Positions 1,618 to 59,375 of a stretch of DNA of 60,711 nt are shown piece after piece. The notes beneath the pieces were generated by a model, which was not told the DNA's origin, searched no databases, and saw only the letters and a program-made list of their open reading frames with translations. The translations under genes were made by a program, and so were the position numbers. The stretch covers positions 1 to 60,711 of the forward strand of contig MFRN01000030.1 in the NCBI GenBank assembly GCA_001784585.1, given 5' to 3'. How positions within the stretch are numbered: position 1 is the stretch's first letter; each line of letters starts with the position of its first letter. This DNA is from Candidatus Melainabacteria bacterium RIFCSPLOWO2_02_FULL_35_15 (lineage in GTDB: Bacteria; Cyanobacteriota; Vampirovibrionia; 2-02-FULL-35-15).

Positions 1618-1625
1618 AAAACTGT

Positions 1626-1631
1626 TATAAT
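1626..1631 (+). promoter_or_regulatory. dapB -10 box with leaderless spacing
   Basis: A perfect TATAAT ends 6 nt before the dapB ATG at 1638, so transcription would be expected to start at or next to the A of the start codon. There is no Shine-Dalgarno sequence. A good -35 is not obvious; that stretch is occupied by the 43-nt repeat. Confidence 0.55.
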
Positions 1632-1637
1632 TTTTTC

Positions 1638-2450
1638 ATGCCAAAAAATATCAATGTATTGGTTTGTGGTGCAGCAGGAAAAATGGGTCAGTGCGTTATA
1701 AGAGCTGTTGATGCTGAAGCCGGATTTAAACTTGTCGGTGCAGTAGACAGATCAGAAAATCCAAATATCGGAAAAGATATTGGAATAATTTGCGGCATAA
1801 ATGAAACTGGAGTTAAATTATCGGGTGACTTAAAAGAAGCTATTACGAAAACAAATCCTGATGTAATGGTAGATTTTACAATGCCTGAAATTGTAATTGT
1901 AAATGCACAAACAGCTCTGAAATCCGGTGTCAGAGCAGTAATTGGAACGACAGGAATGACAAAAGATGATATAAGTGAACTCTCTAAAATATCCAAACAA
2001 AATCAGAGTGGGGCAATTGTCGCACCAAATTTTGCTCTCGGGGCTATTTTAATGATGAGGTTTGCAAAAGAAGCTTCGAGATATTTTTCTTGTGCAGAAA
2101 TCATTGAATACCATCACGATAAAAAACTTGATGCCCCAAGCGGTACATCTATAAAATCAGCAGAGCTTATGGCACAGTCCAGAAAAGAGTTTGGACGGGA
2201 CAGTGTTAAAGGAAAAGAAACTATAAAAGGTGCCCGCGGTTCTATAGCCGATGGAAATATTCATATCCATAGCATTAGACTGCCAGGAATAATTGCTAAT
2301 CAGGAAATAATAATGGGAATGCTCGGTCAGACTTTAACCATAAGACATGATACGTTTGATCGCACAGCATTTATGCCAGGGGTACTCATGGCAGTAAAAC
2401 AAGTAATGGAACTGGATCATCTGGTTTACGGGTTAGAGAATATTATTTAA
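1638..2450 (+). CDS. dapB: 4-hydroxy-tetrahydrodipicolinate reductase DapB
   Basis: DapB is the NAD(P)H-dependent reductase of lysine and diaminopimelate synthesis. The 270-residue length is normal. The N-terminus has the dinucleotide-binding loop GAAGKMG (residues 11-17), GTTG lies at 103-106, and the signature EYHHDKKLDAPSGTS spans 157-171 with the catalytic His-His and Lys. The stop codon overlaps the stop of the convergent binding-protein gene by 4 bp. No other lysine gene is adjacent. The ATG start is fixed by the conserved N-terminus and the promoter-like box just before it. Confidence 0.97.
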   Translation: MPKNINVLVCGAAGKMGQCVIRAVDAEAGFKLVGAVDRSENPNIGKDIGIICGINETGVKLSGDLKEAITKTNPDVMVDFTMPEIVIVNAQTALKSGVRAVIGTTGMTKDDISELSKISKQNQSGAIVAPNFALGAILMMRFAKEASRYFSCAEIIEYHHDKKLDAPSGTSIKSAELMAQSRKEFGRDSVKGKETIKGARGSIADGNIHIHSIRLPGIIANQEIIMGMLGQTLTIRHDTFDRTAFMPGVLMAVKQVMELDHLVYGLENII

Positions 2451-11950: not shown

Positions 11951-11963
11951 TACCTGATCGATA

Positions 11964-12902
11964 ATGTCAAATTTAAACACAACTACTGGTAAAGTCTCCC
12001 TAAAAAACCCTGTTCTGCTTGCTTCCGGTACATGCGGAGTTGCAGGACATGAATTTGAGCCTTATTTTAATTTAAGTGAGCTTGGCGGAATAGTTACTAA
12101 AAGTTTAAGCATAAAACCAAGAGATGGAAATCCTGCTCCACGCGTAGTAGAAATCCCAGGCTGTGGAATGCTCAATTCAATCGGGTTACAGAATCCGGGC
12201 ATTGAATACTTTGTAAAAAATGAGTTGCCTTACTTAATTAAAAAAAATGCCACAATAATAATTAATATAGTCGGTGAAACAGTGGACGACTATGCAGGTG
12301 CTGTTAATTTTATAAGAGATAAAAATGAGATTTCTGCAATAGAATTAAATCTCTCATGTCCCAATGTATCCGGCGGATTGGATTTCAGTCAGGATCCAAA
12401 AAAAGCTTTTACTCTAATCAGTGAAATGAAAAAGTTAACTAAAATCCCTCTCTGGGCAAAACTTTCTCCAAATGTTACTGATATAACTGAAATCGTAAAA
12501 GCCTCTGTAGATGCAGGTTCTGATGGAGTTTCTTTAATTAATACTGTTTTAGGTCTTGCTATAAACCGCTGGACTAAAAAGCCTGCCCTTCCACGTGCTA
12601 CAGGCGGATACAGCGGTCCTGCTATAAAGCCAATTGCACTTAGGATGATCTGGGATACACATAAAAAATTTCCAAACATTCCTATTATTGGAATAGGCGG
12701 GATACATACTGCAGATGATGCCATTGAATTTTTACTGTGTGGTGCATCATGTGTACAAATCGGTACTGCAAACTTTGTAAATCCAAAAGCAAGTATTGAA
12801 ATAATTAATGGTTTAAAGGATTATTGTGAGAAAAATAAATTGAATTCAATTAGTGAAATTGTCGGGGCTGCACACCATTTAGTAACTTTAAGTGGAGCCT
12901 GA
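11964..12902 (+). CDS. pyrD: Dihydroorotate dehydrogenase, class 1B catalytic subunit
   Basis: This FMN enzyme oxidises dihydroorotate to orotate in pyrimidine synthesis. The 312 residues fit class 1. Seen are NPVLLASGTCG, IPGCGMLNSIGLQNPG, and NLSCPNVSGG with the class 1 catalytic Cys132, then IGIGGIHTADDAIEF and GASCVQIGTANF at the phosphate site. Class 1B enzymes use a PyrK electron-transfer subunit; no pyrK is adjacent. The 54-bp gap from rplQ is occupied by the GTCATTGCG repeat. Confidence 0.95.
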   Translation: MSNLNTTTGKVSLKNPVLLASGTCGVAGHEFEPYFNLSELGGIVTKSLSIKPRDGNPAPRVVEIPGCGMLNSIGLQNPGIEYFVKNELPYLIKKNATIIINIVGETVDDYAGAVNFIRDKNEISAIELNLSCPNVSGGLDFSQDPKKAFTLISEMKKLTKIPLWAKLSPNVTDITEIVKASVDAGSDGVSLINTVLGLAINRWTKKPALPRATGGYSGPAIKPIALRMIWDTHKKFPNIPIIGIGGIHTADDAIEFLLCGASCVQIGTANFVNPKASIEIINGLKDYCEKNKLNSISEIVGAAHHLVTLSGA

Positions 12903-13119: not shown

Positions 13120-14109
13120 ATGATTTTAGCTATATTAATACAACCAATTAAAACAATATTTGCTCCATTATTTTGGGTACTAGATGAAACTATACCAAAA
13201 GATGAAAAGCCAACCTTGGAAAATTTTAAAAAATGTTATATCAACAAATGTAATAAAAACCAACCGCCGGGAGATGTTGAAAAAAGGCTTCTCCTTGAAC
13301 TTTTAGGCAGTATTGGTGTTATTAGTGGAGCAATGCTTTGGGTGTATGGTTATTTTAAAAACAGTAAATTTTGGAAATATCTTGGAGGAGGATTATCGTT
13401 TGGAGGACTTGGAACAACTATTACTGGACTTATTCAATATGCCAGATTAGGAATCGGTGAACTATTAAAATTACCTAAAAAATCTGATCCTATAGAACCA
13501 GATGAAAAAAATAAAGCAAATGATAATCCGGAACCAGTTCCAAAAAATATGAGCTTAGTTCCTGTAAATAATGAAGTAGATAATGGAGATAGTACAAAAA
13601 CTAAAGATCAAAATGGACAGAAGGATGTTATTCAGGACGAGTTAGCAGAACCTGGTTACGGAAAGCAATTGCTTAACATAGGTGAAGGAGCTGTCAATAA
13701 AGTCGCCGCAACAACCTCTGACATCCTAGAAAGTCATCCTAATCTTAAGCCTTTCATACTTATAATTCCTGGCGGGGGCAGTATATTGTTAGCAGTTGAA
13801 GCTGTTAAAATCTTTAATGAGTTTAGAAAAGGAAATTTTAGCTTTGAATATGCTGATCCTAAAACTGGGCAAAAGACAGAGTATAGTTATTCTGACGACA
13901 AGACTAAAAATAAAATCTTATTTGAAAAATCCTGTGAAATATTAGGAGTTAATGAGAATTCGACTGAGGAAGAAGTTAAAAAAGCGTATAGAAGTGCAGC
14001 TAAGAAATATCATCCTGATAGAAACTTAGGAGATGAAACTGCTGTCGGACAATTTAAAAACTCAGCACTTGCATATGAAATTATTCGAAAATATAGGGGC
14101 TGGGATTAA
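13120..14109 (+). CDS. Membrane-anchored protein with C-terminal J domain
   Basis: The 329-residue protein has no N-terminal J domain. An N-terminal region includes likely membrane segments near residues 65-85 ([20 protein letters not shown]) and 88-110, and a third hydrophobic stretch near 209-228 ([20 protein letters not shown]). A charged low-complexity linker lies between. The last 60 residues form a J domain: [20 protein letters not shown], then HPD at 298-300. J domains stimulate DnaK ATPase, so this may recruit DnaK to a membrane. No chaperone gene is next to it. It ends 4 bp into the convergent aguA. Confidence 0.8.
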
Positions 14110-15188
14110 ATTAATAGCTCCTGCTTCGTCATACAGTGTAATCCACCGCCTTCTTCTATTAAAAGAGAGCAATCAATCCCTGCTATTTTTCTGTCAGGAA
14201 AAACCTTTTTAAAGGTTTGAAGAGCTTTTTTATCTGCCAGGCAGTTAAATGTCGGAATGATTACCCCGCCATTTACAAAAATAAAATTTGCATAAGAATT
14301 TGGCAGTCTTTCGTTTTTAATTTCTATACGATCCGGCACAGGAAGTTCTATAACTTCTAATTTATATCCCTTCTTTGGATGTATCCACTTTTTTAAATAT
14401 TCAATGCTTTCATTTAGATGTTCATAATTATTATCTTTTTTATCATTAGATTTGCAGATTAAAATCTTTCCTGGACCGACAAATCTGGCTACATCATCTA
14501 TATGTCCGTCTGTATGATCCCCTTCCAGTCCTCGTTTTAGCCAGATTATTTCTTCTGTATTAAAAACAGATTTTAAAATGTTTTCAATTTCATTTTTACT
14601 TAAGTCTGGATTCCTGTTTTTATTTAAGAGACATTGTTCTGTCGTAAGAATCAATCCATCACCAGAAAACTCTAAAGATCCTCCTTCCATGATGATTGGA
14701 TAGGATTCTATTTCACAGCCTAAGTAAAATGCCATCTCTTTCGGAATGTTGTTATCCAGATTCCACGGAGAAAATTTTCCTCCCCATGCATTAAATTCAA
14801 AATCAATTAGTACTGGTTTTTTCTTTTTCCCGTCACCTGTCTCCATAAAAAACGGGCCATAATCCCGGATCCAGATATCGTTATTCGGGATTATAATTTT
14901 TTTTAGTTTATATTTTTTCTGTTGAGACATACTACAGCATGTTTCTTCCAGGAATTCTTCATTTGGAATTATCAAATTCACATCCTGAAATTCCAGGATT
15001 TTATTCACCAATTCAATATAAAATTTTTTTATTTTCTCTATTCTTTTCTTTCCCCATTCCTTTTCATTATGAGGCCATGAAAGCCAGGTAGCACGCTGAG
15101 TTTCCCACTCAGCAGGATAATGTCTGTTAGCTGTTAGCTGCAGACTATTGGTTATTGGTAAAAAGAATTTCTTTTCCTTAATTTTCAT
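14106..15188 (-). CDS. aguA: Agmatine deiminase AguA
   Basis: AguA converts agmatine to N-carbamoylputrescine. The 360 residues carry [57 protein letters not shown] and the C-terminal GGGLHCMT with catalytic Cys352. These motifs fit the agmatine deiminase branch of the Porphyromonas-type peptidylarginine deiminase family. It follows aguB with an 11-bp overlap, so the two-step pathway is encoded together. The N-terminal 20 residues before the conserved block are not diagnostic, so a later start is possible. Confidence 0.94.
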
Positions 15189-16041
15189 CTGAATACTTTA
15201 ACAGACTATTATAACTGTCAATTCTTCTATCACGTAAAAATGGCCATATCTGTCTGCATTCTTTTGTTTTACTAAAATCAATTTCTACTTCTGAAATAAC
15301 TTCATTTGTTTTGTCTTGTTTAACCAGGGCCCCATAAGGATTTACTAAAAAAGAATGTCCCCAGAAATTTAAGTGCCCTTCTTTTCCTGCTCTGTTTACA
15401 GCCATGACATATATTCCATTTGCAATAGCATGTGAGCGCATAATGGTAGTCCAGGCCTCAACTTGTTCAGAGTAAACATCAGCAGGTTCATTATCATCCC
15501 AGCCAATTGCAGTAGGATAGATTAAAATATCCGCACCTTTAAGAGCTGTAATTCTGGCTGCTTCCGGGAACCACTGATCCCAGCAGATTAAAATACCAAG
15601 ATTTCCAAGAGATGTTTTTATAACTCTGAATCCCAGGTCTCCGGGGGTAAAATAATACTTTTCATAAAATCCAGGATCATCAGGAAGGTGCATCTTACGA
15701 TAGTGTCCTGCTATTTCTCCGTTATTTTCTATAATTAAGCAGCTATTGTGATAAATCCCTTCTGTTCTTTTTTCAAAAATCGGCAGAGTTAAAACAATCT
15801 TTAAATCTTTTGCAAGCAATTGAAAATGTTTTATTATATCTGATTTAATTTCAACAGCTGTATCAAAGTATTTTTTATCTTCTGTAATCGGGAAATAATC
15901 CCACAAAAATAATTCAGGAAGCACTATTAATTTTATATGATTCTTTGCAGCAGATTTTATTTTTTCTGAATAATATTTCAGGTTTTTATTAAAATCACCC
16001 TGTGATTTCCCCTGAATCCATGCTGTTTTAAACGATGGCAT
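15178..16041 (-). CDS. aguB: N-carbamoylputrescine amidase AguB
   Basis: This nitrilase-fold amidase yields putrescine, ammonia and CO2. The 287 residues show the catalytic triad: Glu43 in LPELFLWDYF, Lys116 in HYRKMHLPDDPGFYEKYYF and Cys153 in ILICWDQWFPEAAR. These contexts and the partner aguA make the N-carbamoylputrescine specificity likely. A TAAAAT box ends 6 nt before the ATG, suggesting a leaderless transcript. Arginine decarboxylase, needed to make agmatine, is not in the window. Confidence 0.95.
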   Translation of the reverse strand: MPSFKTAWIQGKSQGDFNKNLKYYSEKIKSAAKNHIKLIVLPELFLWDYFPITEDKKYFDTAVEIKSDIIKHFQLLAKDLKIVLTLPIFEKRTEGIYHNSCLIIENNGEIAGHYRKMHLPDDPGFYEKYYFTPGDLGFRVIKTSLGNLGILICWDQWFPEAARITALKGADILIYPTAIGWDDNEPADVYSEQVEAWTTIMRSHAIANGIYVMAVNRAGKEGHLNFWGHSFLVNPYGALVKQDKTNEVISEVEIDFSKTKECRQIWPFLRDRRIDSYNSLLKYSDEN

Positions 16042-33078: not shown

Positions 33079-34380
33079 TTAGATTAACTTTCTAGCTTCT
33101 GCCAGCTCATCATTTTTATTCATGCTTGCATTTTTAATTTTTTTCTCTAATATTTGTTCTAAGATCTCCCCGATTTTCTTACCTTCTTTAACTCCCATAT
33201 GAATTAAATCCTGACCGGTAATTTCTAATTTTATTTTTGAGGTTTTTTCGATATATTCGTCTATGAAATTATTTATACCATATAACATTTTTACAATACA
33301 AATACTCTCAGCAGAAAGATTTCTTAATTCATGATAAATAATTACAGAATCAACTGATTGTTGTTCTTTTAATTTGTTAAGGGCATTAAAGCCATCCTTA
33401 ATTATTTTTATCTCATCTGCAGTTAATTGGAGGTTTTTCATTATTTTTTCCTGTCTGTCAGAAGACAAATCTTTTATTATTAATGCAAAATATATTAACC
33501 AGCCCGTAGAGACGTTGCATGCAACGTCTCCACCGCATGCAACGTCTCCACCGTATGCAACGTCTCCACCATATGCAACGTCTCCACCGTATGCAACGTC
33601 TCTACGAGATTCCAAATCTATCGATATCATTCTATAAATCCCTAAATTAAAAAATGTTCTGACTGCATGTTCTATATCCGGCAAATTAAACAAATATCTG
33701 ATTTCAATCTTTACCCTGTCCCCGCGGATCTTTTCAATTAAATTATCAAATTGTCTGGAGTCAATAGCTTCTTTTAAAAGTCTTTTTGTGTTTTCTTCAA
33801 TCTCAAAACCCAGTTTACATGCAAATCTTCCAGCCCTTATTATTCGGGTCGGGTCATCAATAAAACTTAATTCATGAAGTATCCTTATTTTTTTTTCTTT
33901 TAAATCAAGTAACCCGTCAAACAGATCAACTATTTCACCAAAATCTTCCGGCAGAATTGAAACAGCAAGAGCATTTATCGTAAAATCACGGCGATACAAA
34001 TCACGCTTCAGATCAGAAACACTGACTTTAGGAAGAGCAGCAGGATGTTCGTAAATTTCTTCTCTACTTGAAGCCAAATCAATAGGAATTTTTTCTCCAT
34101 TAACATTAAAAATAACTTTGGCTGTATGAAAACGATCGTGTTTGGCGCTTAATTCACAGTTTGGAAATTTCTTTACTAATTTTTCTGCCAGAAGCTTTGC
34201 ACTATTTTCAACCACAATGTCTATATCCAGATTATCAAAACCAAGCAATAAATCTCTTACCATACCACCTACAAGGTAAGATTTTAGTCCTTCTTCTTTG
34301 GATACTTTGCCAATGTCTATTAGCAAAGTATAGTGATCCTTGTCGATTTTTTGAAGTTTATCTTTTATATTAGATTTCAT
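33079..34380 (-). CDS. cca: CCA-adding enzyme with an in-frame palindromic repeat insert
   Basis: This class II tRNA nucleotidyltransferase is 433 residues. The head has LVGGMVRDLLLG and the catalytic DIDIVVEN, then RRDFTINALAVSI and FIDDPTRIIRAGRFACKLGF. The C-terminal region (ITGQDLIHMGVKEGKKIGEIL) is typical. Between residues about 259 and 291 lies an insert of six-residue units (GGDVAY or GGDVAC), encoded by 18-bp DNA repeats at 33521-33602. These repeats form a palindromic element. The frame is open through it and the flanking domains look intact, so the enzyme is probably functional with a flexible loop. Both tRNA genes in the window need CCA addition. Confidence 0.93.
   Translation of the reverse strand: MKSNIKDKLQKIDKDHYTLLIDIGKVSKEEGLKSYLVGGMVRDLLLGFDNLDIDIVVENSAKLLAEKLVKKFPNCELSAKHDRFHTAKVIFNVNGEKIPIDLASSREEIYEHPAALPKVSVSDLKRDLYRRDFTINALAVSILPEDFGEIVDLFDGLLDLKEKKIRILHELSFIDDPTRIIRAGRFACKLGFEIEENTKRLLKEAIDSRQFDNLIEKIRGDRVKIEIRYLFNLPDIEHAVRTFFNLGIYRMISIDLESRRDVAYGGDVAYGGDVAYGGDVACGGDVACNVSTGWLIYFALIIKDLSSDRQEKIMKNLQLTADEIKIIKDGFNALNKLKEQQSVDSVIIYHELRNLSAESICIVKMLYGINNFIDEYIEKTSKIKLEITGQDLIHMGVKEGKKIGEILEQILEKKIKNASMNKNDELAEARKLI
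33506..33605. repeat. Palindromic 18-bp tandem repeat inside the CCA-adding enzyme gene
   Basis: GTAGAGACGTTGC at 33506-33518 is the exact reverse complement of GCAACGTCTCTAC at 33593-33605. Between them are four full 18-bp units starting GCAACGTCTCCACC (33521, 33539, 33557, 33575) and a fifth partial one. The unit length is a multiple of three, so the reading frame is kept. The outer sequence is the same type as the element at 9608-9655. Confidence 0.9.
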
Positions 34381-58757: not shown

Positions 58758-59375
58758 ATGATAATTAATCCATATAATCCAAATCAATTTTATGTAGGAG
58801 CAGGTATAAACTCACCAGGCCAGGAAGGTCCTGAAAAAAGAGAGACAGAAACAATCAGAAAAAATGATCCATTTAGACTTAGAGCTAAATACATTGGGAA
58901 TCAAAAGGTAATTAGTATCCTGGATGTAATAGAACAAGCAGTAGAAAAAAGTAATGAAACAGGAACACTAGATTTAAGTAATACAGACCTAAGCAATTTA
59001 TCATTATCAGGTTTGCGGTTAGGAGCACGTCTTGTTAACCTGGAAAGGTTAATTTTAGCAACAGGAGCAAAAAATCAATACCCGTTGTCTCGTGCCAACT
59101 TGTCTCGTGCTAACTTGTCTCGTGTTAACTTGTCTGATGCTAACTTGTCTGATGCCGACTTGTCTGATGCCGACTTGTCTTATACTGACTTGTCTTATGC
59201 CAACTTGTTTTGTACCAACTTGTCTTGTGCCAAGTTGTCTTGTGCCAACTTGTTTAATGCCACCTTATCTGCTGCCTTTATCCTGCAAGGCACTAAAAAA
59301 ATTGCAGGTGAGGAATTAAGAAGATATTTAGTTATAAACTATAACGTGAATGTTAATAAAAACACACGGTTCTAA
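58758..59375 (+). CDS. Pentapeptide-repeat protein
   Basis: I choose the ATG at 58758 (MIINPYNPNQFYVG) with AAAAAGGAGATAAGA directly before it; an upstream in-frame ATG at 58689 has no such site. The 205 residues have a leader of about 75 residues, a first short solenoid turn (DLSNTDLSNLSLSGLRL) and then about 12 uninterrupted pentapeptides (ANLSR, VNLSD, ADLSD, YANLF) from roughly residue 113 to 172. The DNA here is a near-perfect 15-bp tandem repeat (59091-59270), suggesting recent expansion. The function is unknown. Confidence 0.88.
   Translation: MIINPYNPNQFYVGAGINSPGQEGPEKRETETIRKNDPFRLRAKYIGNQKVISILDVIEQAVEKSNETGTLDLSNTDLSNLSLSGLRLGARLVNLERLILATGAKNQYPLSRANLSRANLSRVNLSDANLSDADLSDADLSYTDLSYANLFCTNLSCAKLSCANLFNATLSAAFILQGTKKIAGEELRRYLVINYNVNVNKNTRF
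59091..59270 (+). repeat. 15-bp tandem repeat coding for pentapeptides
   Basis: About 12 copies of units close to GCCAACTTGTCTCGT encode A(N/D)LSx. The spread of changes (Cys, Tyr, Asp, Arg at the fifth position) follows blocks, as expected from duplication of groups of units. Confidence 0.85.

What the first reader, a model, noticed from the sequence alone, without database searches (positions are those of the whole stretch)
33506..33605. Palindromic repeat expanded in-frame inside the CCA-adding enzyme gene
Four and a half 18-bp units enclosed by a 13-bp inverted repeat lie within the coding sequence of an essential enzyme. They add about 30 residues (GGDVAY units) without breaking the frame. 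A related palindrome sits between rpmJ and rpsM, so this looks like a mobile short palindrome that entered a gene and then expanded. It recalls the in-frame palindromic elements described in Rickettsia, but the sequence type resembles repeats I associate with Cyanobacteria.
Basis: partly seen in the sequence, partly recalled or inferred. Interest (0 to 1): 0.7.

Follow-up and report, generated by a model that had tools for sequence, protein, structure and literature searches.

The report
Mobile palindrome grown inside enzyme gene
A 28-letter mobile DNA palindrome sits inside the gene of a tRNA-finishing enzyme and has copied one arm of itself four times without breaking the protein; it belongs to a known kind of jumping palindrome that, in this bacterial family, lies inside dozens of core genes.

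Summary
Window 33506-33605 is one 28-bp palindrome plus exactly four 18-bp half-palindrome units, in frame in a tRNA nucleotidyltransferase gene (33079-34380, minus strand). It is a "double-foot" REP, the kind that Quentin et al. 2018 tie to TnpAREP (RAYT) subclass 2.4. The genome holds about 20 intact copies and an intact RAYT of that subclass, which carries the same REP, also expanded by 18 bp, between its HuH and Tyr motifs. The REP in the enzyme is old: six of ten family members checked have one at the same codon, with different but mostly perfectly paired stems. Only the window's species shows the four-unit expansion, which adds 24 residues. Related arrays occur in Nostocales, Runella and other bacteria, with periods of 14-25 bp, mostly 18. 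Further points: REPs lie in frame in core enzymes (Eno, DnaX, RadA, GltX, PyrD, TrpC), in one species as often as random positions do; against orthologues without a REP they add only 0-24 (once 27) nt, so they mostly replace sequence; stem mismatches show no preference for G.U in mRNA, which points to a DNA-level cause. A known kind, with an uncommonly rich data set.

The parts
33506..33605 (.). Whole element: double-foot REP plus four half-palindrome units, in frame in the tRNA nucleotidyltransferase gene
33506..33533 (.). Complete 28-bp palindrome GTAGAGACGTTGCATGCAACGTCTCCAC (one mismatch, in the right foot)
   Evidence: other copies
33534..33605 (.). Four 18-bp units (33534-33551, 33552-33569, 33570-33587, 33588-33605), each the right arm plus centre; the last one ends in an intact CTAC foot
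33079..34380 (-). Host gene: class II tRNA nucleotidyltransferase (CCA- or A-adding), 433 aa
9608..9655 (.). Second REP of the family in the window, with a partial extra arm, between rpmJ and rpsM
14109..15191 (-). REP-free orthologue of G001 L246: same length as the REP-bearing gene (net 0 nt)
11961..12875 (+). pyrD, REP-free orthologue of G008 L292 (REP form +12 nt)
1620..2447 (+). dapB, REP-free orthologue of G008 L104 (REP form +15 nt)

Best explanation
The array is a double-foot REP (non-autonomous palindromic element of the TnpAREP/RAYT subclass 2.4 kind) that entered the linker of a tRNA nucleotidyltransferase gene before the family radiated. It was kept because the linker tolerates about 10 changed residues and because two of the three frames through the element are open. 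In the window's lineage one arm was then duplicated in tandem four times in steps of 18 bp, most likely by hairpin-promoted replication slippage, with selection keeping only steps divisible by three. Shown: element identity, genome-wide family, cognate RAYT gene with the same REP inside it, same-codon occupancy in six species, expansion in this species only, in-frame expansion of related arrays elsewhere. Inferred: spread by TnpAREP single-strand cleavage and transfer, slippage as the cause of the array, and tolerance rather than function at the protein level.
For: About 20 intact copies in the genome and up to 83 in relatives, reversed-pattern control 0 (1 in G007). RAYT with NHVH, WQ and YIMNNP motifs carrying the same REP with an 18-bp duplication; same features as subclass 2.4 in PMC6006769. 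Single REP at the same codon in five relatives. Genomes where no RAYT was found have 4, 1 and 0 REPs. In-gene arrays of 18, 21 and 24 bp in this family and 14-25 bp without frame constraint elsewhere.
Against: No transposition or repeat-number change was observed; there is no strain data. REP number does not track RAYT number closely (G005: four RAYTs, 17 REPs). The extra base in the 18-bp units is not explained by simple microhomology slippage. The tree behind a single old insertion is weakly supported.
Confidence: 0.85

Rival explanations
1. The tandem units were made by the transposase, not by slippage: TnpAREP cleavage at GTAG feet and strand transfer between REPs produced head-to-tail half elements, as has been proposed for complex REP arrays (PMC3733652).
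For: Units begin at or next to a GTAG foot in most arrays; RAYT genes are intact in this genome; TnpAREP enzymes cleave near REP feet in vitro (PMC8266576).
Against: Periods vary from 14 to 25 bp and some units start inside the stem (21-bp array in G009 L100), which foot-to-foot joining does not predict. Arrays of unrelated GC-rich coding repeats show that slippage alone makes such arrays.
Confidence: 0.25
2. Independent insertions hit the same codon in each species, so the site is a hot spot and not an old insertion.
For: Each species has a different stem; in G000, G008 and G009 an identical REP exists elsewhere in the same genome. Presence is scattered on the tree.
Against: All six are at the same codon and in the same frame. 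Other genes share the site between species too (GltX, QueA, TrpC, the L253/L207 gene). Replacement of a resident REP by another, or palindrome-correcting mutation, explains different stems without new insertion.
Confidence: 0.2
3. The palindrome is kept for an RNA hairpin in the mRNA or for a protein function of the repeat.
For: Mostly perfect pairing in spite of changing sequence.
Against: Sense-strand mismatches are 15 G/T against 16 A/C, with no preference for G.U. The peptide differs between species and the same element is read in two frames in different genes (41:38). Four relatives lack it.
Confidence: 0.05

Closest known systems
Double-foot REPs of TnpAREP subclass 2.4 (Bertels group 4), Quentin et al. 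2018, PMC6006769
   Same: GT[AG]G and C[TC]AC at the two ends, long stem, dispersed copies, TnpAREP with NH[IFV]H, WQ and YIxNNP, REPs in frame inside the tnpAREP gene between HuH and Tyr, found in Cyanobacteria and Bacteroidetes.
   Different: Here also in many housekeeping genes, with in-gene half-arm expansion and replacement of host residues; these points were not in the text read. That paper does mention short repeats in the variable domain of subclass 2.4.
GTAG REPs and intragenic REPs, Di Nocera et al. 2013, PMC3733652
   Same: GTAG-tagged palindromes, present in Cyanobacteria, linked to RAYTs, sometimes in frame in genes including tRNA enzymes; clusters coding for 43-82 residues are reported.
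   Different: Their GTAG is unpaired and at one end; here both ends pair. Their elements are mostly extragenic.
Rickettsia palindromic elements (RPE)
   Same: In-frame palindromic inserts in many genes.
   Different: Other sequence family; R. conorii RPE-4 and RPE-6 are placed with CGTC REPs and have no known transposase (PMC3733652).
Small dispersed repeats (SDR) of Nostoc, Elhai et al. 2008 (recalled, paper not read)
   Same: 21-27 nt mobile repeats in cyanobacteria with compensatory stem changes.
   Different: Sequences not compared here; described as working through RNA intermediates (from memory).

Membership tests
[quoted passage not shown]
   GTAG...CTAC in the copies read, by pattern; GTGG/CCAC variants in the array
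Double-foot REP (TnpAREP subclass 2.4) | Long palindromic stem, dispersed in many copies | tested here: met
   27-29 bp, 20-83 copies in four genomes, reversed control 0
Double-foot REP (TnpAREP subclass 2.4) | Cognate TnpAREP with NH[IFV]H, WQ, YIxNNP in the genome | tested here: met
   G000:C10:43184-43762, NHVH, WQ, YIMNNP; NF047646 E 1.5e-20, 73.5 bits against cut-off 80
Double-foot REP (TnpAREP subclass 2.4) | REP inside the tnpAREP gene, in frame, between HuH and Tyr | tested here: met
   At least 11 of 16 near-complete RAYTs of the family
Double-foot REP (TnpAREP subclass 2.4) | Cleavage or mobilisation of the REP by the cognate enzyme | not testable with these tools
   needs biochemistry
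Canonical GTAG REP (Di Nocera 2013) | Unpaired GTAG tag at one end only | tested here: not met
   GTAG pairs with CTAC at the other end
Rickettsia palindromic element | In-frame insertion in coding genes | tested here: met
Rickettsia palindromic element | Sequence relation to the Rickettsia families | not tested
   no Rickettsia sequence was compared; literature puts RPE-4/6 with CGTC REPs
Nostoc SDR elements | SDR1-8 consensus sequences | not tested
   the paper was not read; resemblance recalled only

The most novel reading that the evidence does not exclude
In this family REPs do not simply insert but overwrite. A REP copy replaces target sequence (net 0-24 nt, once 27, for a 27-29 nt element) or a resident REP, so a palindrome can stay at one codon across genera while its stem sequence turns over by a DNA-level, palindrome-preserving process. 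That makes core enzymes routine, nearly neutral hosts for a mobile element.
Probability: 0.3. Interest if true: 0.75.

Novelty: new member of a known kind. Interest (0 to 1): 0.5.

Why it matters
REPs are named for being extragenic. Here is a bacterial family in which they sit in frame in enolase, DnaX, RadA, PyrD, GltX, TrpC and a tRNA nucleotidyltransferase, with REP-free orthologues at hand, several of them in this very window. Such with-and-without pairs let one ask how a REP gets into a gene, what it displaces, and why palindromes stay perfect while their sequence changes. The array is also a natural record of a hairpin-linked repeat expansion filtered by reading frame.

Tried and rejected
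AlphaFold of the enzyme alone: mean pLDDT 35.8, pTM 0.26, meaningless, not used for a fold search; whether the insert is a surface loop therefore rests only on the PDB sequence alignment, which skips residues 232-321 between two aligned parts. Literature search for the bare sequence GTAGAGACG: the listed papers looked like chance hits. Searches for REPs in Melainabacteria and for palindromic tandem repeats in this enzyme: nothing relevant. The 84,980-genome scan had period 18 built in and so could not be used for the period; a separate search with gap 1-20 was made. Several hits of that scan (Archangium, Streptomyces, Oscillospiraceae, one Deltaproteobacteria MAG) look like unrelated coding repeats without a terminal palindrome. 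Considered and rejected: selection for an mRNA hairpin; assembly artefact (units differ from one another and the frame is kept, but reads could not be checked).

Full report
Observation. The stretch 33506-33605 is one 28-bp palindrome followed by exactly four 18-bp copies of its right arm with the centre, in frame in a 433-aa class II tRNA nucleotidyltransferase gene on the minus strand. The encoded stretch is RRDVAYGGDVAYGGDVAYGGDVACGGDVACNVSTG. The units differ from one another at the CGC/CGT/CAT triplet and at CCAC/CTAC, so they are not freshly copied. NCBIfam's best model for the enzyme is the A-adding type, below its cut-off, and a paralogue exists at C10:6011-6607, so its exact activity and essentiality are open.

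Family of elements. The window genome (1.94 Mb, 45 contigs) has 20 matches to GTAGNGNC-N8..16-GNCNCTAC; same-family genomes have 0-83; the reversed control pattern gives 0 in all of them except one match in G007. In four genomes 147 copies were read: lengths are 27-29 bp with two of 25, 133 sequences are distinct, 89 have no mismatch, and 75 of 113 28-mers are perfect palindromes with 55 different arms. In the phylum they are frequent in many genomes (f19: often tens to hundreds) and nearly absent in f5 and f36. The same half-arm arrays occur in Nostocales, Runella, Chitinophagaceae, Bacteroidales, Anaerolineae and Desulfamplus.

Transposase. An intact RAYT lies at G000:C10:43184-43762. Its frame carries the REP, with one 18-bp duplication, between the HuH motif (NHVH) and the Tyr motif (YIMNNP). 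At least 11 of 16 near-complete RAYTs in the family carry a REP there. This matches the 'double foot' REPs and REP-bearing tnpAREP genes of subclass 2.4 described by Quentin et al. 2018 (PMC6006769). Genomes where no RAYT was found have 4, 1 and 0 REPs.

History of the site. Six of ten family members have a REP at the same codon: GTAGAGACGTTGTATGCAACGTCTCTAC (G001), GTAGAGACGTATGGCCATGCGTCTCTAC (G008), GTAGAGGCGTTGCGCGCAACGCCTCTAC (G009), GTAGGGGCTTGTCGCGACAAGCCCCTAC (G004), GTAGTGACGCGATCAATCGCGTTACTAT (G002), and the array in G000. G003, G005, G006 and G010 have none; the orthologue of G007 was not recovered whole. Summed over all species pairs, 67 stem differences are two-sided and 19 one-sided; pairs are not independent. 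Presence is scattered on a two-gene tree with weak support, so one old insertion with losses is likelier than six hits at one codon. In G008 and G009 the REP of this gene has an identical copy elsewhere in its genome, so replacement by a sister copy is possible.

REPs in genes. By a stop-to-stop criterion (at least 150 aa, at least 30 aa each side), REPs lie in frame in 34 of 46 (G008), 12 of 20 (G000), 17 of 34 (G009) and 16 of 47 (G001) cases; random positions in the same DNA give 0.68-0.75. G008 thus shows no avoidance of genes and G001 a clear one. Survivorship may raise the share, since intergenic copies may decay faster, and the criterion is not a gene prediction. Host genes identified above NCBIfam cut-offs include queA, prpB, glpK, dnaX, gltX, mtnA, dapB, alr, queG, eno, radA (two REPs), thiL, trpA, rlmB, cobA, hemB, wecB, pyrD and trpC. 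Of the three frames one has a TAG stop in the foot; the 79 intragenic copies use the other two 41:38.

Replacement. Where a REP-free orthologue was in hand (17 REP sites), the REP-bearing gene is longer by only 0-24 nt, once 27 depending on the orthologue compared, typically 12-15, never by 28-30. Examples: the gene at window 14109-15191 against its G001 orthologue, 0 nt; pyrD +12; dapB +15. Against solved structures the enolase alignment has one extra residue at the REP and DnaX five. Either insertion removes target bases, or later trimming was selected; in coding DNA a plain 28-bp insertion would shift the frame, so survivors are a filtered set.

DNA or RNA. Sense-strand mismatches in intragenic REPs are 15 G/T and 16 A/C, so there is no sign of selection for mRNA pairing. 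Beyond the feet only the first flanking base pair is complementary clearly more often than background (60% against 22-39%).

Expansion. In-gene arrays in G000 have periods of 18 (tRNA nucleotidyltransferase, QueA, RAYT) and 24 bp (C36), and in G009 21 bp. In nine genomes reached through the scan, a search with free gap gives 14-25 bp, mode 18, with non-multiples of three. Those genomes were chosen because they hold an 18-bp array, so the mode is partly selected. This fits a hairpin-linked duplication process filtered by frame within genes. Slippage is favoured over transposase joining because some units start within the stem, but neither is shown.

Verdict. The thing is a known kind of element in a new place, expanded, within a family-wide pattern that is more striking than the single case.

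Noticed in passing
L066 (G002 tRNA nucleotidyltransferase), L265 (G009), window 11918: A second, longer palindromic repeat family (GTCATTGCGAG...CGAAATGAC or CTCGCAATGAC) is also inserted in frame in genes of this family, including the same enzyme in G002.
   Followed up: partly
window 59085-59253: 15-bp tandem repeat, 11.3 copies, coding for pentapeptide-type repeats (LSxAN) in a 228-aa ORF.
   Followed up: no
L063 (G009): The same enzyme has a second REP near its C-terminal part (VETLHCSVST) that other species lack.
   Followed up: partly
L239 (G001) and L288 (G008): WecB carries REPs in almost the same place but in different reading frames in two species, so these look like separate insertions.
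   Followed up: partly
L012, L024, L101, L207: REP-bearing ORFs without an NCBIfam match at 1e-10; their identity was not pursued.
   Followed up: no
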